Source: Methylotuvimicrobium sp. KM2
GTDB taxonomy: Bacteria > Pseudomonadota > Gammaproteobacteria > Methylococcales > Methylomonadaceae
NCBI RefSeq assembly: GCF_038051925.1
Contig: NZ_CP150634.1
Coordinates: forward strand, 4,224,300-4,288,299
Length of the DNA: 64,000 nucleotides
Direction of reading: 5' to 3'
The first letter of the stretch is position 1. Every line of letters starts with the position of its first letter. A program made the translations under genes and the position numbers. Positions 20,036 to 63,151 of the stretch are shown here, piece after piece. The notes under the pieces are model-generated. The model worked only from the letters and a program-made list of their open reading frames with translations, had not been told where the DNA came from and made no database searches.

Positions 20036-20280
20036 ACGTTCATGAAGGCCTAGTCATCGCCCCGGCAAATGAAAGTTCTCTGGTGATGGAGGGTGCGGTC
20101 ACTCCGCCCGACAGGACGCCGTGAATACGTCCATGTAGGCTCGACGGCGGCTCCCTGCCGCCGACGCCTGCCGGTCGAGCAACCGCACCCTCTCCGGAAC
20201 CGGAATTGCCAGAGCGGAGATTTGTATATCGAAAAATTAGATAATGAGTCTAAATCCACAAACTTTCACAGTAATATATT
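20036..20280. repeat. ATGAAGG...CTTTCACAGTAA repeat with full shared core
   Basis: Starts catgaaggcctagtcatcg and ends acaaactttcacagtaata. In between: gggtgcggtcactccgcccg, acaggacgccgtgaatacgt, ccatgtaggctcgacggcgg, ctgccgccgacgcctgccgg, tcgagcaaccgcaccctc and cgaaaaattagataatgag. This is the uninterrupted version (inverted) of the repeat split by the insertion element at 59675. Confidence 0.85.
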
Positions 20281-32832: not shown

Positions 32833-32995
32833 TATACCCATCATCGTAGATCAAAATTCGGCGCCGAGGTGTTCGTCAAAGGACGCCGCGAATACGTCCA
32901 TGTAGGCTCTATGCCAGCTCCATGCTGGCAAAGCCTTTGCTGAACACCCCGGCGCCTCCTTAGGCAATGCCGAAATTTGAAGTGCGAAAGGTATA
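32833..32995. repeat. TATACC/GGTATA palindromic repeat
   Basis: Termini tatacccatcatcgtagat and gaagtgcgaaaggtata with arms caaaattcggcgcc / ggcaatgccgaaatttg. Core: gtcaaaggacgccgcgaata, cgtccatgtaggctctatgc, cagctccatgctggc. The cleanest complete copy of the family, nearly the reverse complement of the one at 49675-49836. Contains a ccatgtaggctc target-like site for the IS110 element. Confidence 0.85.
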
Positions 32996-49693: not shown

Positions 49694-49836
49694 ATTTCGG
49701 CAGCGCCAGAGGAGGCGCCTGAGTGTCCGATAAAGGCTTTGCCAGCATGGAGCTGGCATAGAGCCTACATGGACGTATTCACGGCGTCCTTTAGCGGACA
49801 CCCAGGCGCCGAATTTTGATCTACGACGGGTATATT
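49675..49836. repeat. TATACC/GGTATA repeat fused to the 5' end of the BamC-like gene
   Basis: Termini tatacctttcgcacttcaaa and gaattttgatctacgacggg then tata; core with gccagcatggagctggcat, agagcctacatggacgtatt, cacggcgtcctttagcgg. Almost the reverse complement of 32833-32995. It is open in the minus-strand frame of the BamC-like gene, so it can be read as extra N-terminal residues. Confidence 0.85.
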
Positions 49837-57685: not shown

Positions 57686-58152
57686 TCGCGATGATAGGGA
57701 TGGTTATTTAAAATACTCCAGGCGCGATAAATCTGTTCGGCAACAATCACACGCACCAATGGATGAGGAAAAGTCAGCTTGGACAAACTCCAGGATTCGC
57801 GCGCCAATTGTTTCGCATCATAGGACAATCCTTCAGGTCCGCCGACCAATAAGGCGACATTCCGCCCGCTTTCGAGCCATCTTTTCAAGGCAACCGACAA
57901 TTCCGGCGTCGACCAAGGCTTCCCGGGGACGTCCAAGGTAACGACATGCGCGTCTTTAGCGATTGCCGCGACCATTTTATCGCCTTCGTCCTTGACGATA
58001 CGGGCCGAATCGCTATTTTTACCCCGCTTGCCCGGCGGAATCTCCTTGAGTATCAATTCGCACTCTCTTGGCAGTCGCTTAGCGTATTCATCATAACCCG
58101 CTTGCACCCAAGCCGGCATTTTATTGCCTATAGTAATCAGTTGTATTTGCAT
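57682..58152 (-). CDS. rlmH: 23S rRNA pseudouridine-1915 N3-methyltransferase RlmH
   Basis: 156 aa from ATG 58152 ([20 protein letters not shown]). SPOUT methyltransferase with [16 protein letters not shown], the SAM knot [18 protein letters not shown] and the C-terminal [20 protein letters not shown]. The reading frame goes further up to 58236 into a repeat and is rejected as coding there. First gene of the rlmH-maf-rng-yhdP series. Confidence 0.96.
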
Positions 58153-58228
58153 GCGCGGAGCATACACAGAAGCCCTGTCCCGCGCAATAAACAAACGCCA
58201 TCGTTTAATCGAAGAAAGCCTTTCTAGT

Positions 58229-58490
58229 GTTCGCACATCAAATTTCGGTTTTTTTATCCCCTCATCCTAGCCTTCTCCCGGAGGGAGAAGGTATTGAAGC
58301 GCCGAAATTTGATGTGCGATAGATATACAAGGCAATGTATGCGGTAATAGTTGCCCCCGCTACCGAAAGCACATTAAGCTATGGGTGACTCTCCACCGGT
58401 ACGCACAGCGTACCCTACTGTCTTTTCGGCATTTGCATAGTATCAATTTCAACGATTAACGCGAACATAGACTTTTACAATAGGAACCGT
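58229..58490. repeat. Short palindromic repeat plus remnant of the 36961-type element
   Basis: 58229-58330: gttcgcacatcaaatttcgg and gccgaaatttgatgtgcga arms around a C-rich hairpin (ccttctcccggagggagaag), ending gatata. 58403-58430 has a ggtacgcacagcgtacc palindrome. 58445-58490 is the right terminus (gattaacgcgaacatag) of the element at 36961. No gene in 58237-58571. Confidence 0.7.
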
Positions 58491-58571
58491 TGCAGTAAAT
58501 AATAGCCCTTCTAGATATCAGACATTTTAACGGTTGAACTATAATTTCAATTTTTACGACTGATCTGTACC

Positions 58572-59339
58572 ATGGCTACCAGTTCCTTTTTCGAGCAGCT
58601 ATTCAAATGGGTTTTCATTGTCAGCGCATTACTGACAGTCCTGCTTTATTTCAAAAAAGACCATTTACCGGAGCCGAATTTTTACAATCTCGGTTATCTC
58701 GACGAACCGGTTCAAGCCAAGTTAAAGGCCGAGCCGTTCAAGACCCAAGTCAACGATCAAGAATATACGATTACGCCTCTGTATGACTATGAGTTACACG
58801 GCGTCGTCGTCAGTTACAGTGACGCCGATGCCTTCACCAACATCTGGCACCACAAACGCTGGCATGATTTTATAAATCTTCGCGACTTATGCGTGATCTG
58901 GGGTAAAAATGTCGGTTCCGGCGTTTACCGGCAAATGAAGTTTCATAACGATAGCTGGACATGCTGGGCTTCCTGGCAAGACTACGAGACAGGGGCTTTA
59001 TTCAAGATGAACGCACTGTCGAACAATCATTTACTGACCGACGACGACCGCATCAAAAAAGCGCTGATGTCCGCAGAACCGGGCGATCATATCCGTTTCA
59101 AGGGCGTATTGGCCGAATATGCCAACAAAAGCAATAATTTCTTTCGCGGCACCAGCATTACCCGAGACGACAACGGCAACGGCGCCTGCGAAACGGTTTA
59201 CTTGGAGGAATTCGAAATCGTCAAAAAAGCCAATCGGGGCATTCGCAAACTTTACGGCATCACCAAATGGCTGGCCATCGTTTCTTTTTTCGGTTTTCTT
59301 ATCTTCTTTGCGATTGCACCGGTTAGAATTCGGCATTGA
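58572..59339 (+). CDS. Conserved hypothetical protein with membrane helices at both ends
   Basis: 255 aa. An N-terminal helix (FKWVFIVSALLTVLLYF), a soluble central domain of about 190 residues (QEYTITPLYDYELHGVVVSY, WGKNVGSGVYRQMKFHNDSW, CWASWQDYETGALFKMNALSNN) and a C-terminal helix (WLAIVSFFGFLIFFAIAPV). No catalytic motif recognised. Two Cys in the centre and one near the end could form disulfides if the domain is periplasmic. Alone between repeats, upstream of the insertion element and the mxa genes; no functional link is implied. Confidence 0.7.
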   Translation: MATSSFFEQLFKWVFIVSALLTVLLYFKKDHLPEPNFYNLGYLDEPVQAKLKAEPFKTQVNDQEYTITPLYDYELHGVVVSYSDADAFTNIWHHKRWHDFINLRDLCVIWGKNVGSGVYRQMKFHNDSWTCWASWQDYETGALFKMNALSNNHLLTDDDRIKKALMSAEPGDHIRFKGVLAEYANKSNNFFRGTSITRDDNGNGACETVYLEEFEIVKKANRGIRKLYGITKWLAIVSFFGFLIFFAIAPVRIRH

Positions 59340-59448
59340 CAGGAGCAATTCATTGACAAACAGGCTTTGATGGCTTTATATCTTTCGCACTTCACATTTT
59401 GGCAATGCTCGAAGAGCCGCCGAATTTTGATCTCCAATGGGTATATTC

Positions 59449-59674
59449 ACGGCGTCTTGCCGGGCGAGTGACCGCGCCCTCCGCCACCCAAGGATGGTCA
59501 TTTGCCGGGGCGATGGCTAGACCTTCATGAACGTTACTGTGAAAGTTCGTGGATTTGAAATCTTAATCTAGTTTTTCGATATTAAGAAGCTCGACAGAGA
59601 AAATGTAGGCTCCGGAGAGGGAGCGGTTGCTCGACCGACAGGCGTCGGCGGCAAGGACAGCCGCCGTCGAGCCT
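59449..59674. repeat. Left part of the shared-core repeat split by the IS110 element
   Basis: Contains gttactgtgaaagttcgtgg, cttaatctagtttttcgat, ggagcggttgctcgaccgac, aggcgtcggcggcaagg and agccgccgtcgagcct, stopping exactly at the element. The missing right part continues at 61001-61098 (acatggatatattcacggcg, tcctgtcgggcgagtgac, ccggggcgatggccggg, tttcatgaacg). Together they give the reverse complement of 20036-20280. A second truncated copy (59449-59530) precedes it. Confidence 0.85.
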
Positions 59675-59735
59675 TGTATGATTAATTTAAATGAATTTTA
59701 GCCAGGAAATACTTTAAGCTGTACCGAGTTCATTG

Positions 59736-59871
59736 GGAGGCCGCTTGAGCCTGAGGACTGGATTAAACCAGAGCCTGTCATGTAGATTGGCCCCCGCCCT
59801 ATTCACCTATACCGCGGAGTATCTGAGGCTTAGAGCCTGCATTCACAAGGATGGTAGGTGCATACGCAGGG
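59736..59871 (+). ncRNA. Candidate bridge RNA in the left end of the IS110 element
   Basis: Two stem-internal-loop units can be drawn. Unit 1: outer stem ggaggcc/ggccccc (59736-59742, 59789-59795, one mismatch), apical hairpin ctgg/ccag (59758-59771). Its left side carries gagcct (59747-59752), identical to the left target flank; its right side carries tcatgtag (59778-59785), whose first seven pairable bases complement ctacatg at the right target flank. Unit 2: outer stem ccct/aggg (59797-59800, 59868-59871), apical hairpin aggct/agcct (59826-59838). Its left side carries gagtatct (59817-59824), identical to the element's right end plus core; its right side carries catac (59861-59865), complementary to gtatg at the left end. 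This matches target- and donor-binding loops of IS110 bridge RNAs. Confidence 0.7.
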
Positions 59872-59922
59872 TCGGGAACCAATGACTAGTTTACTTTCCT
59901 TATCACAGAATAACAATTAAAC

Positions 59923-60957
59923 ATGGCAGATCAACAAATTAACAGCGCTTCACTTGACACACAAACCCGTATCTTCGCTGGCGTCGATGTAGGATCTAAA
60001 GAACTGGTTTTGGTGGTGCGCAAAAATGGCAAACCTTTCAATCCGCAGAAGTTCTCCAATACCCCAGCTGATCATGCCCGGATGGCCAAGAAATTGAACA
60101 AATTGTCCGGCATTATCGTGTGTATGGAAGCCACCGGCAGTTATCATTTCGATTTAGCCGTTGCGCTCCATGATGCCGGGGTCAAGGTAATGGTCATCAA
60201 TCCCAAGGTCTCTCATAACTTTGCTAAAGTATTGATGAACAATAGTAAAACAGACGATGTGGACGCGAATACTCTGGCGGTGTATGCCGAACGGATGGAT
60301 TTTGTGCCTTGGTCCCGTCCTTCGAATGAAAAGATCGCTTTACGTTGTTTCTCACGCCGTATTAATGCGCTAACCGATCAAAAAACAGCAGCAAAGAATC
60401 AGTTGCATGCCTTAAGCGCAACAGTTGAAACACCCAAAGCCGTGCTAAAAGATGCACAAGCAGCCATCGATCAATTAGATAAGCGTATCGATCAGTTAAC
60501 GGCTGGCGCCTTGGCATTGATCGAAAAACATCCGGAACTCAGTCGAGCATTAGTTTTGTTCACGAGCATTAAGGGTATTGCCAATACCAGTGCGATTGCT
60601 CTCATGGGAGAACTACTGATTTTGCCTGCGGATATGTCGCACCGTGAGTGGGTCAAGTTTGCGGGGCTCGATCCAAGAGCTTTTGATTCCGGCACGAGTG
60701 TCCACAAAAAAACGCGTATATCCAAGGCCGGTAACAGCCAGATTCGCGCCGCCCTGTATATGCCTGTCTGGAGCGCTGTGCAGCATGATCGCCATATTAA
60801 GGCGTATTACCAACATCTCCTTGAGATGGGTAAATTACCGTTGCAAGCCTGTTGTGCGGTCATGCGTAAATTGTTACATGCGATTCACGGCATGCTCAAG
60901 CATGATAAACCATTCGATAACACGCGTTTTTATGCAATTCCGTCAATCGCTGAATAG
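59923..60957 (+). CDS. IS110-family DEDD recombinase (transposase)
   Basis: 344 aa, full length. The N-terminal RuvC-like domain has D22 in GVDVGSKE, E69 in CMEATGSYH and D101/D104 in SKTDDVDANTLA. A coiled-coil middle is followed by the C-terminal Tnp domain with FTSIKGIANTSAIALMGE, WVKFAGLDPRAFDSG and RISKAGNSQIRAALYM, where S257 is the likely catalytic serine. The enzyme pairs with an RNA encoded in the element to recombine donor and target DNA. It is preceded by 248 bp of non-coding left end. Confidence 0.95.
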   Translation: MADQQINSASLDTQTRIFAGVDVGSKELVLVVRKNGKPFNPQKFSNTPADHARMAKKLNKLSGIIVCMEATGSYHFDLAVALHDAGVKVMVINPKVSHNFAKVLMNNSKTDDVDANTLAVYAERMDFVPWSRPSNEKIALRCFSRRINALTDQKTAAKNQLHALSATVETPKAVLKDAQAAIDQLDKRIDQLTAGALALIEKHPELSRALVLFTSIKGIANTSAIALMGELLILPADMSHREWVKFAGLDPRAFDSGTSVHKKTRISKAGNSQIRAALYMPVWSAVQHDRHIKAYYQHLLEMGKLPLQACCAVMRKLLHAIHGMLKHDKPFDNTRFYAIPSIAE

Positions 60958-61183
60958 CAGAAAAATGCCTATTTTTAACTTGATTTTAAACAGAGTATCT
61001 ACATGGATATATTCACGGCGTCCTGTCGGGCGAGTGACCGCGCCCTCCGCCACCCAAGAACTATTTTTCCGGGGCGATGGCCGGGCTTTCATGAACGAGA
61101 GGTTAAAGATCTACCCAAATAACCCCAACCGGCAACCCTTTGCCGAATTAATGCTACCGATAACACTTAAACTAAACACCATA

Positions 61184-62200
61184 ATGACCGACCGAAACCT
61201 AGCCGATTGGCATAACCGCGCCGCACTGTTCGAACAGGAAATCAACAAAGCCGTGATCGGACTCGAACGTCCGGTACGACTCGTCACGACCGCGATATTC
61301 GCGCGCGGCCATGCGATGCTCGAAGGCGATGTCGGGGTTGGTAAAACCACCTTGTTGAGAGCCGTTGCACGCGGCATCGGCGGCGCTTATGAGCGCATCG
61401 AAGGCACCATCGATCTGATGCCGAACGACCTGGTCTACCACACCTACATCAACGAAGCCGGCAAACCGCAGGTCGACCCCGGCCCGATATTGAAACATGG
61501 CGAGGAGCTGTCGACCTTCTTCTTCAACGAAGTCAACCGCGCCAGACCCCAGGTCCATTCATTACTGTTGCGCGTGATGGCCGAAAAATCGGTCACGGCT
61601 TTCAACCGCGAGCATTATTTCCCGCATTTGCAAGTCTTCGCCGACCGCAACAGAGTCGAAAAGGACGAAACCTTCGAAATACCCTCCGCGGCCCGCGACC
61701 GTTTCATGATGGAGCTAAAAATCGAAACGCCCGAAGAACCGGCCCTGCAGCGCGAATTGATGTTCAATCCGAGATTTTACGATGTCGACGCATTGATCGA
61801 GACGATTCAGCCGGGCATCCTACCCTACCGAGAATTGAACGAAATCAGCCGGCAGATTCAGCATCACATTCAAGCCAGCGAAACGTTGCAAAATTATGCC
61901 TTACAACTTTGGCAGGCGACCCGTTTCCCGAAAAACTTTTCGATTGCATTGGACAATGTCGACATGGACCGGCTAATCCTGGCGGGGGCCAGCGCCCGCG
62001 GTGCCGGAATGCTGATGCGCGCGGCGCGAGTGACGGCATGGCTAAACGGTCGTACGCACGTCTTGCCGGAAGATATCCGCGAAATTTTCCATGAAACGAT
62101 CGCGCACCGTGTGTTTTTCAACCCGACTTACGAATTGAGACGTACACTGCTCGCCGAACAGCTCAGCCAAAAAATACTGCAGCAGGTAGCGGCGCCCTAA
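61184..62200 (+). CDS. mxaR: MxaR, MoxR-type AAA+ ATPase for methanol dehydrogenase maturation
   Basis: 338 aa from ATG 61184; the frame is open back to 60644, but that part reads through the transposase gene and repeat. Walker A is GDVGVGKTT; the Walker B position reads FFFNEVNRARPQ with Asn where most MoxR proteins have Asp; then sensor 1 near FADRNRVEKDE and PSAARDRFMMEL. C-terminal lid with ILAGASARGAGMLMRAAR. MoxR ATPases act with vWA-type proteins as chaperones, here for metal or cofactor insertion in methanol dehydrogenase. mxaS follows. mxaFJGI, often upstream, is not present here: the upstream DNA is a repeat with an insertion element. No clear ribosome site. Confidence 0.85.
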   Translation: MTDRNLADWHNRAALFEQEINKAVIGLERPVRLVTTAIFARGHAMLEGDVGVGKTTLLRAVARGIGGAYERIEGTIDLMPNDLVYHTYINEAGKPQVDPGPILKHGEELSTFFFNEVNRARPQVHSLLLRVMAEKSVTAFNREHYFPHLQVFADRNRVEKDETFEIPSAARDRFMMELKIETPEEPALQRELMFNPRFYDVDALIETIQPGILPYRELNEISRQIQHHIQASETLQNYALQLWQATRFPKNFSIALDNVDMDRLILAGASARGAGMLMRAARVTAWLNGRTHVLPEDIREIFHETIAHRVFFNPTYELRRTLLAEQLSQKILQQVAAP

Positions 62201-62274
62201 GAAAATTTGCTCCAGTCCATTTGTACGTGAAACTTAATCGGATGATGCTCTAAGAATTTTATTATTTATCTTTC

Positions 62275-62308
62275 CGCTCACTGCTCACTACTAACCGCTT
62301 ACTACCAC
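62275..62308. repeat. Degenerate heptanucleotide run before mxaS
   Basis: ccgctca, ctgctca, ctactaa, ccgctta, ctaccac with period 7, ending ten bases before the mxaS ATG at 62318. The usual purine-rich ribosome site is missing in this stretch. 62201-62274 holds nothing recognised. Confidence 0.5.
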
Positions 62309-62317
62309 AAGCCAACG

Positions 62318-63151
62318 ATGCTCGAAGAATTTCATTATCAACTGCCTTGGCGCACCGCGAGCGCGCACCCTGGTCGACATGCCGGCAAACACAGCGGCGG
62401 CGAACACGAGTTCCACGGGCATGCGCCCTTGATTGCCCGTCCCGAAGCGCACAATATCGATATTCACGCCAGCCTGCTCGACCCGTTCGGCCAATTCATG
62501 GTCAGGACTTTTCGCCAACGCGGCTTGATTTCGGTCAACATCATTGCGGACTTATCGGCCTCGATGGGCTTTCACGGAAAAATGAAAACCCTGGCACGGT
62601 TTACCGAATTGACGGCTTATTCGGCCTATCGTAGCGGCGATCATTTTGGCTTTTTCGGCTGCGGACTGGATTTATTGCCGGACTTTCATCTACCGCCGCG
62701 CTGGTACAAAGGCGGTGCCGCCGAACTCGTAGACCGGCTCGGGCAATTCGCCCCCGGCGACAGCCATTGCCGAAGCCTGCTCTCGATCGCCGAGCATTGC
62801 CCCCGGCACCGCTCGTTGATTTTTCTAGTCTCCGACTTTCATTTTCCGTTTCATGAAACCGCCGAAATTTTCGATTCGCTGTTGAAACACGACGTGATCC
62901 CGGTCGTATTATGGCATCCCCAAGAGTATCGCAATCTGCCGGAATGGGGCCTGGTGCGCCTGGAAGATCCGGAAACCGGTAAAGGCCGACAATTACTGAT
63001 GCGTCCGGCCCTGAAACGCAAAATCATCGCGGCATTCGAGACCCGGCAAGAACAGCTCAAGCATTTGTTTACGCGCTACGGCCGCCAAGCGTTTTTTCTC
63101 GACGACACCTTTCAGGCCGATCAGCTCACCCATTATTTCTATGAACAATAA
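62318..63151 (+). CDS. mxaS: MxaS, DUF58 protein of the methanol dehydrogenase cluster
   Basis: 277 aa. DUF58/vWA-like fold: IDIHASLLDPFGQFMVRTFR, then the metal-site-like IIADLSASMGFHGKMKTLAR, FLVSDFHFPFHETAEIFDSL and VVLWHPQEYRNLPEWG. Together with MxaR it belongs to the MoxR-DUF58 partner type needed to assemble active methanol dehydrogenase. Located 117 bp after mxaR. A repeat of about 150 bp separates it from mxaA. Confidence 0.85.
   Translation: MLEEFHYQLPWRTASAHPGRHAGKHSGGEHEFHGHAPLIARPEAHNIDIHASLLDPFGQFMVRTFRQRGLISVNIIADLSASMGFHGKMKTLARFTELTAYSAYRSGDHFGFFGCGLDLLPDFHLPPRWYKGGAAELVDRLGQFAPGDSHCRSLLSIAEHCPRHRSLIFLVSDFHFPFHETAEIFDSLLKHDVIPVVLWHPQEYRNLPEWGLVRLEDPETGKGRQLLMRPALKRKIIAAFETRQEQLKHLFTRYGRQAFFLDDTFQADQLTHYFYEQ

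What the first reader, a model, noticed from the sequence alone, without database searches (positions are those of the whole stretch)
59675..60998. IS110-family element with a readable candidate bridge RNA matching its own target and donor ends
The insertion boundaries are fixed by the interrupted repeat (core CT at 59673-59674 and 60999-61000). In the 248-bp left end, one stem-loop holds gagcct (same as the left target) and tcatgtag (complement of ctacatg at the right target). The next holds gagtatct (same as the right element end plus core) and catac (complement of gtatg at the left element end). Each pair sits on opposite sides of an internal loop with an apical hairpin, the arrangement described for IS621 bridge RNA. 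A purely visual reading predicts both specificities of an RNA-guided recombinase in a methanotroph.
Basis: partly seen in the sequence, partly recalled or inferred. Interest (0 to 1): 0.85.

Follow-up and report, generated by a model that had tools for sequence, protein, structure and literature searches.

The report
RNA-guided jumping gene in a methanotroph
A small jumping gene in a methane-eating bacterium appears to carry its own RNA guide that picks a very common repeated DNA sequence as its landing site; the mechanism is already known from a relative in E. coli, and this is a clean new example of it.

Summary
The element is real and the core reading is right. 59675-60998 is a 1324-bp IS110-group insertion sequence: DEDD plus serine recombinase, 248-bp left end, 41-bp right end, CT core. 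Five full copies lie in the 5.0-Mb genome, all at GAGCCT|ACATGGA. The orthologous site in a sister genome (apparently Methylotuvimicrobium buryatense 5G) is empty.

The left target guide is 59744-59752. Across 20 distinct guides in relatives it follows the left flank: 4.29 of 5 variable positions match, against 2.30 for shuffled pairings, reached by 0 of 20000 shuffles; slid registers give at most 1.67. The right target guide is weakly supported outside the genus.

One guide was misread. By base-for-base homology to IS621 it is ATTCACAAG, 59841-59849; 26 of 26 aligned sequences keep the pattern.

The target is an abundant, genus-specific mosaic repeat: 143 exact unoccupied 11-mers, 0 in the reversed control. 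Relatives often target REP-like hairpins ending in CCTAC. It works like IS621 and belongs to the same family: a new member of a known kind.

The parts
59675..60998 (+). IS110-group element, 1324 bp, flanked by the CT core
   Evidence: Five copies 99-100% identical with common ends; empty orthologous site
59673..59674 (+). CT core, left copy
   Evidence: Direct reading; a single CT in the empty site
60999..61000 (+). CT core, right copy
   Evidence: Direct reading
59666..59674 (+). Left target GTCGAGCCT
   Evidence: 5 of 5 own-genome copies share GAGCCT
60999..61007 (+). Right target CTACATGGA
   Evidence: 5 of 5 own-genome copies
59690..59860 (+). Bridge RNA, inferred extent about 171 nt (start inferred from the -10 box, end by homology to the 177-nt IS621 RNA)
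   Evidence: Conservation in 26 aligned left ends; extent inferred, not measured
59735..59795 (+). Target-binding loop: lower stem 59735-59742/59789-59795, upper stem 59754-59761/59768-59776
   Evidence: Two compensatory pairs, columns 30/90 and 46/72 (GC 14, AU 12 each, after a gap was moved within a C run)
59744..59752 (+). Left target guide CTTGAGCCT
   Evidence: Homologous position covaries with target across 20 distinct guides
59779..59785 (+). Right target guide CATGTAG
   Evidence: Complement of CTACATG; 12 of 12 readable in the genus; weak in other families
59786..59787 (+). Target-loop handshake guide AT, complementary to donor positions 7-6 (T, A)
   Evidence: Position by homology to IS621 nt 81-82; inferred
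59804..59860 (+). Donor-binding loop: lower stem 59804-59807 and 59811-59813 with 59853-59855 and 59857-59860; upper stem 59826-59829/59835-59838
   Evidence: Compensatory pairs at columns 105/173 and 127/151; RNAalifold finds both stems
59817..59824 (+). Left donor guide GAGTATCT
   Evidence: Identical to the right end plus core; AGTATC in 26 of 26 aligned sequences, final T in 18 of 26
59841..59849 (+). Right donor guide ATTCACAAG (AT, two bases TC left out, ACAAG), pairs with CTTGTAT
   Evidence: Matches IS621 A157-U158/(159-160 flipped)/161-165 position by position; AT-NN-[AG]CAAG in 26 of 26
59850..59851 (+). Donor-loop handshake guide GA; G is complementary to target C7, A is mismatched to target position 6 (G) here
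   Evidence: GA in 26 of 26; position by homology to IS621 nt 166-167; inferred
   Evidence: Outside the donor-loop stem; 1 of 14 subfamily A sequences in the alignment has CATAC although the subfamily A donor ends printed all start TGTATGAT
59677..59682 (+). -10 box TATGAT of the promoter formed only in the excised circle
   Evidence: Junction TTGATT-17-TATGAT across the core
60980..60985 (+). -35 box TTGATT at the right end, same circle promoter
59923..60957 (+). IS110 recombinase, 344 aa; catalytic residues D22, E69, D111, D114, S256 by alignment to IS621
   Evidence: Pfam PF01548 8.8e-25 and PF02371 8.5e-20; IS621 1e-39, ISCro4 5.2e-43; residue numbers

Best explanation
This is an intact, probably recently active IS110-group insertion sequence that works like IS621. 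Excision joins the right end, CT core and left end into a circle (inferred). The join creates a sigma-70-like promoter that transcribes a bridge RNA of about 170 nt from the left end (promoter seen in sequence; transcription inferred). The first loop pairs its left guide with the bottom strand of GAGCCT and its right guide with the top strand CTACATG; the second loop pairs with the element's own ends, GAGTAT-CT-TGTAT. The recombinase (DEDD plus serine) then exchanges strands at CT (inferred from IS621). The target is the constant core of an abundant mosaic repeat of this genus. In relatives the left guide has changed together with the target, which is often a REP-like hairpin ending in CCTAC.
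For: Five own-genome copies, and 13 of 13 copies fetched from four genomes of the genus (these five included), sit at GAGCCT|ACATGGA. Two of the five are identical over 1324 bp at different sites. Empty orthologous site. Left guide covaries with the left flank: 20 distinct guides, 4.29 of 5 against 2.30, 0 of 20000 shuffles; 4.31 against 2.41 without the own family, 0 of 20000; slid registers at most 1.67. Of 40 loci outside the own family, 27 match at all 5 variable positions and 7 at 4. Compensatory changes in both loops. Donor guides conserved in 26 of 26. Circle promoter in 11 of 11 distinct subfamily A junctions, 8-10 of 12 bases. Catalytic residues aligned to IS621. The left end is longer than the right, as in the IS110 group.
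Against: The right target guide is weakly supported outside the genus (positions 5-7: 636 of 20000 shuffles reach the value with the own family, 1644 of 20000 without). The own left guide mismatches at position 3 in 13 of 13 copies, and position 1 matches in 1 of 13. Of 40 other loci, 6 match at 3 or fewer of the 5 variable positions (L115, L120, L137, L144, L146, L151); in G121 five copies share one guide and match at 2, 5, 3, 4 and 5. The shuffle test treats related guides as independent. Thermodynamic folding is not special (z -0.70). RNAalifold preferred another pairing for the target loop, and the lower target stem needed a gap moved by hand in a run of C before counting. The compensatory changes amount to few evolutionary events, mainly one split between two subfamilies. 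No shuffled control was run for the promoter, and in 3 of 7 subfamily B junctions the best-scoring pair of hexamers is not the homologous one. No transcript or circle was observed.
Confidence: 0.95

Rival explanations
1. Same IS110 bridge-RNA system, but with the right donor guide at catac 59861-59865.
For: catac is the exact complement of gtatg at the left element end, and AG follows two bases later, which mimics a discontiguous 9-nt guide.
Against: It lies 3' of the donor-loop closing stem. 1 of 14 subfamily A sequences has CATAC although the donor ends printed are the same. ATTCACAAG matches the solved IS621 guide position by position, and its pattern is kept in 26 of 26.
Confidence: 0.03
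2. Targeting is done by the protein alone and the RNA-target matches are coincidence or common descent.
For: Short matches are easy to find by eye: GAGCCT occurs three times in the left end. Related guides are not independent.
Against: 20 distinct guides follow their own targets; 0 of 20000 shuffles reach the observed match and slid registers collapse. Two IS110s in the same genome have different guides and correspondingly different targets (L001 and L143).
Confidence: 0.01
3. IS1111-group element with the guide RNA in the right end.
For: Same recombinase superfamily.
Against: Left end 248 bp, right end 41 bp; conserved guides lie in the left end.
Confidence: 0.005

Closest known systems
IS621 (IS110 group, E. 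coli); PDB 8wt6
   Same: DEDD plus Ser recombinase (E 1e-39), CT core, left-end bridge RNA with target and donor loops, donor right side CTTGTAT as read from the base pairs listed, right donor guide with two flipped bases, promoter across the circle junction, REP-type targets
   Different: Host, guide sequences, and target: here a genus-specific mosaic repeat core GAGCCT|ACATG
ISCro4 (PDB 9t56)
   Same: IS110-type transposase, the best match among solved structures (E 5.2e-43)
   Different: Only its sequence and name were seen; its guide RNA was not compared
ISPpu9, ISPpu10, ISPa11 (IS110 family in Pseudomonas REPs)
   Same: Listed as inserted in REP repeats in 7/7, 7/7 and 6/6 cases; 2-bp direct repeats stated for the first two (passages of PMC1525189)
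   Different: Different hosts and REP families; their guides were not examined here
seekRNA of IS1111/IS110 (PMC11187229)
   Same: By its title and abstract start, the same kind of guide RNA under another name (search listing only)
   Different: Paper not read

Membership tests
[quoted passage not shown]
   87.7 and 71.4 bits against cut-offs 29 and 21.3
IS110 family, IS110 group | Catalytic D, E, D, D and serine | tested here: met
   D22, E69, D111, D114, S256 align with the IS621 motifs that hold D11, E60, D102, D105, S241
IS110 family, IS110 group | Scarless insertion at a 2-bp core | tested here: met
   Empty site with a single CT in G010; same junctions in 5 of 5 copies
IS110 family, IS110 group | Left non-coding end longer than right, bridge RNA in the left end | tested here: met
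   248 against 41 bp; conserved guides in the left end
IS110 family, IS110 group | Left target guide identical to left target and covarying with it | tested here: met
   in the own family 6 to 8 of 9 positions match
IS110 family, IS110 group | Right target guide complementary to right target | tested here: inconclusive
   Met in this genus (12 of 12 readable); 1644 of 20000 shuffles reach the observed value in the other families
IS110 family, IS110 group | Donor guides complementary to the element ends | tested here: met
   AGTATC and AT-NN-[AG]CAAG in 26 of 26; the ends hardly vary, so no covariation test was possible
IS110 family, IS110 group | Circle junction forms a promoter | tested here: met
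   TTGATT-17-TATGAT, 9 of 12 bases; no shuffled control, activity not tested
IS110 family, IS110 group | Bridge RNA is transcribed and needed for recombination | not testable with these tools
   Needs RNA-seq and an in vitro assay
IS1111 group | Right end longer than left, guide RNA in the right end | tested here: not met
   Right end 41 bp
RAYT-linked REP as the target | REP-type repeat near a TnpA-REP (Y1_Tnp) gene | tested here: not met
   Five Y1_Tnp hits in the genome; no target-like site with up to 2 mismatches in the loci fetched around them, about 1.5 kb on either side. This concerns the repeat, not the element

The most novel reading that the evidence does not exclude
In this family of methanotrophs the IS110 lineage keeps its right guide (GTAG) and donor-loop handshake G fixed on the REP head GTAGG, and retunes only the left guide to whichever REP-like repeat is abundant in the host. 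Bridge-RNA evolution would then be a running record of host repeat turnover. Support: exact target word in the guide's own genome, with reversed control: own 143 (0), G117 207 (0), G134 30 (0), G094 25 (4); own word 0-6 in ten genomes of other genera. Against: G121 6 (0), G059 1 (1), G167 1 (1), the second own-genome element 3 (3); the G134 word is commoner in G121 (46) and G024 (71), and the G117 word occurs 50 times in the window's genome.
Probability: 0.35. Interest if true: 0.55.

Novelty: new member of a known kind. Interest (0 to 1): 0.35.

Why it matters
It supports, from sequence alone, that an IS110 bridge RNA can be read and its landing sites predicted in a bacterium far from E. coli. 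It also gives a natural retargeting series: 20 left guides with their targets, 19 of them from one bacterial family. The target occurs 74 to 239 times as an exact 11-mer in five genomes of the genus, so the element, or its recombinase with a changed guide, could be tested as a multi-site insertion tool in methanotrophs. It does not change the known mechanism.

Tried and rejected

Single-sequence folding as evidence: rejected, z -0.70. RNAalifold's own target-loop pairing (columns 29-33 with 68-73): not preferred, because columns 30, 46, 72 and 90 all switch together and only the two-stem model uses all four; not excluded.

Rfam: no match at E up to 1 in 58000-63000. Viral contigs: 31 pattern matches, none encoding a relative.

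Right target guide as strong evidence: rejected outside the genus. The first right-guide count had one guide misread by the pattern (L129); corrected it became weaker (positions 5-7: 293 of 20000, 636 of 20000; five positions: 303 of 20000).

RAYT gene next to the target repeat: not found. Promoter scan of the integrated copy: 2 sites found, 2.1 expected, no evidence. The repeat finder on the two flanks: nothing.

Rows used and dropped: of 66 family matches, 57 were examined (5 own copies and 52 fetched); 9 partial matches (G032, four in G070, G071, two in G106, one in G121) were not fetched. Ten genome-contig loci (L039-L048) were added and six of them (L039-L044) left out as repeats of the same places, giving 61. 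Of 61, 7 had no readable left guide (L149, L150, L154, L155, L045, L047, L048) and 1 of the remaining 54 had no left flank. One search had missed two more guides (L123, L141), which reads. The other genome-contig loci (L049-L073, mostly partial matches) were not used. The 26-row alignment takes 26 of the 32 left ends printed; six near-identical ones (L004, L105, L107, L108, L111, L147) were left out.

An attempt to find whether the mosaic of the target repeat is made at the CT core stopped at a table of 30 sites; it shows mosaicism, not cause.

Full report
What is there. The window lies at 4224300-4288299 of a single-contig genome of 5002976 bases. Its genus is Methylotuvimicrobium by inference: the same-genus genome G010 has a contig of 4984547 bases, the length of the M. 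buryatense 5G record, with the element at the same place. The element spans 59675-60998. Its single long frame (59923-60957, 344 aa) matches Pfam DEDD_Tnp_IS110 (8.8e-25) and Transposase_20 (8.5e-20). Among solved structures, two sequences match at E up to 0.001: ISCro4 (5.2e-43) and IS621 (1e-39). The alignment keeps the catalytic residues D22, E69, D111, D114 and S256, equivalent to IS621 D11, E60, D102, D105 and S241.

Boundaries. Five full copies exist in the genome, at 99-100% identity. All five read GAGCCT|TGTATG...AGAGTAT|CTACATGGA. The joined flanks of the window copy align in one piece, 97% over 1174 bp, with a sister genome that has CCGTCGAGCCTACATGG uninterrupted. Insertion therefore adds 1324 bp and one extra CT.

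Target. GAGCCTACATGGA occurs 127+148 times with up to one mismatch in the genome, against 1+1 for the reversed pattern. GAGCCTACATG exactly occurs 143 times here and 239, 202, 74 and 103 times in four other genomes of the genus (controls 0-1); a fifth, G093, was not counted. In ten genomes of other genera it occurs 0-6 times (controls 0-5). The genome with 103 sites, G078, showed no copy of the element, though it is a draft in about 170 contigs. The repeat is a mosaic: among 30 perfect sites read, two classes of left module combine with several right modules around the shared core. The window itself holds three empty perfect sites.

Test of the guide. 61 loci with a relative's recombinase were examined (57 of the 66 family matches, and four further genome-contig loci). 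The left guide could be read in 54, and 53 of these had a left flank. At guide positions 2-9, 27 loci match 8, 19 match 7, 3 match 6, 3 match 5 and 1 matches 4. These eight include the constant CCT, so the test used only the five variable positions. Over 20 distinct guides the mean is 4.29 of 5, against 2.30 (sd 0.23) when targets are dealt out among guides; 0 of 20000 shuffles reach it. Without the own family it is 4.31 against 2.41, again 0 of 20000. Sliding the target by -4 to +3 bases gives 0.88-1.67. Nineteen of the guides come from the window's family and one from a Sulfurimicrobium MAG (L046). The same genome holds a second IS110 (54% identical) whose guide TTCGCACCT matches its own left flank at 9 of 9 positions (L143).

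Limits. The right target guide fits well in this genus: CTACATG in 12 of 12 copies with a readable guide; the thirteenth, L105, has a changed base there. Elsewhere it is near chance: 1644 of 20000 shuffles reach the observed value. The own left guide CTTGAGCCT mismatches its targets at position 3 in 13 of 13 copies. Six of 40 loci outside the own family match at 3 or fewer of the 5 variable positions: L115, L120, L137, L144, L146 and L151. In G121 five copies with one guide match at 2 to 5 positions, so the guide does not fix every landing. Related guides share ancestry, which the shuffles ignore.

Structure. In 26 aligned left ends, the stems of both loops are largely kept. Compensatory changes occur at columns 30/90 and 46/72 in the target loop and at 105/173 and 127/151 in the donor loop. 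These reflect few independent events, mostly one split between two subfamilies, and for the target loop a gap was moved by hand within a run of C. Folding energy alone says nothing, and RNAalifold finds the donor loop but another target pairing.

Donor guides. In the IS621 structure the guide is A157-U158, two flipped bases, then position 161 and C162-G165, pairing with donor positions 14 to 8 (passages of PMC11208158). The window has ATTCACAAG at 59841-59849 in that place, which pairs with CTTGTAT with the same two bases left out. All 26 sequences fit AT-NN-[AG]CAAG. The handshake positions partly fit: AT after the right target guide is complementary to the donor; GA after the right donor guide is invariant (26 of 26), its G facing the C at target position 7, while its A does not pair with the G at position 6 here.

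Expression. The circle junction reads TTGATT-17 nt-TATGAT with the core in the spacer, as reported for IS621 (section 5 of PMC11208160). The 11 distinct subfamily A junctions score 8-10 of 12. The 7 subfamily B junctions score 8, and in 3 of them the best-scoring hexamers lie elsewhere. No shuffled control was run. In the integrated state only the -10 box belongs to the element.

REP heads. Across 45 loci with 40 bases of left flank, 26 have a perfect hairpin stem of at least 6 bp left of the core, against 2.1 expected from base-shuffled flanks (largest 7 in 200 shuffles); on the right, 0 of 45 against 2.2. Copies within one genome are not independent, so this overstates the number of separate cases. 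The targets printed read CCTAC except two, L133 and L046, with CCTAT. CCTAC is the complement of GTAGG, the head of many REPs in the table of PMC2817692 (passages). IS110 insertion into REPs is long known (PMC1525189 passages; PMC11208160 passages).

Is it new? Among the listings of three searches no paper on an IS110 bridge RNA in methanotrophs appeared. One search listed 12 of 25 papers, and two papers that hold both Methylomicrobium and IS110 (PMC6956133, PMC8527097) were seen only as listings. The library is open-licence only. The principle, the family and the REP preference are all published. The element is a new member of a known kind.

Guide against host repeats. The exact 11-base target word of four guides is clearly enriched in its own genome (control in brackets): own 143 (0), G117 207 (0), G134 30 (0), G094 25 (4). 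It is weak for G121 (6, 0) and not enriched for the second own-genome element (3, 3), G059 (1, 1) and G167 (1, 1). Two more genomes share the guide core CCCGACCT: G024 43 (14) and G137 7 (6). Most of these words fix one base left of the effective guide, so those counts are lower bounds. Nor are the words exclusive: the G134 word is commoner in G121 (46) and G024 (71), the G094 word occurs 18 times in G135, and the G117 word 50 times in the window's genome. This is compatible with retuning to abundant repeats but does not show it.

Noticed in passing
L143 (G000:C1:47274-49657): A second IS110 of a sister subfamily in the same genome, 54% identical; left guide TTCGCACCT equals its left flank at 9 of 9 positions.
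   Followed up: partly
window 59439-59674 and 61001-61100; loci L009-L038: The target repeat is a genus-specific mosaic: two classes of left module and at least three right modules combine around GAGCCTACATGGACGTATTCAC in 30 sites read. Cause unknown; exchange at the IS target core is one possibility.
   Followed up: partly
window 20130-20142 (-), 32897-32909 (-), 49761-49773 (+): Three empty perfect target sites inside the window.
   Followed up: no
L118, start of the left end: The donor-side end TGTATGATTAAAACT is repeated about five times in tandem in this relative.
   Followed up: no
L105 and L129, target loop: Within-genome variants of the right target guide (GTAG to GGAG in L105; TCTAGTAG in L129 against TCCGTGTAG in sister copy L124): natural guide mutants.
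   Followed up: no
window 59796-59799 and 59869-59873: A conserved outer pairing GCCC/GGG-C beyond the IS621-like 3' end (column 95/188: GC 16, AU 10); its extension uses the C run of the target-loop stem, so the two could be alternative folds of a longer transcript.
   Followed up: no
G117: ACCCGACCTAC occurs 207 times in this 3.0-Mb genome (control 0) and 50 times in the window's genome (control 3); several of the listed places are close inverted pairs, as in a REP family.
   Followed up: no
L161, L163, L164, L165: The repeat tract around the insertion is missing or shortened at the orthologous place in four sister genomes, so the target repeats themselves come and go.
   Followed up: partly
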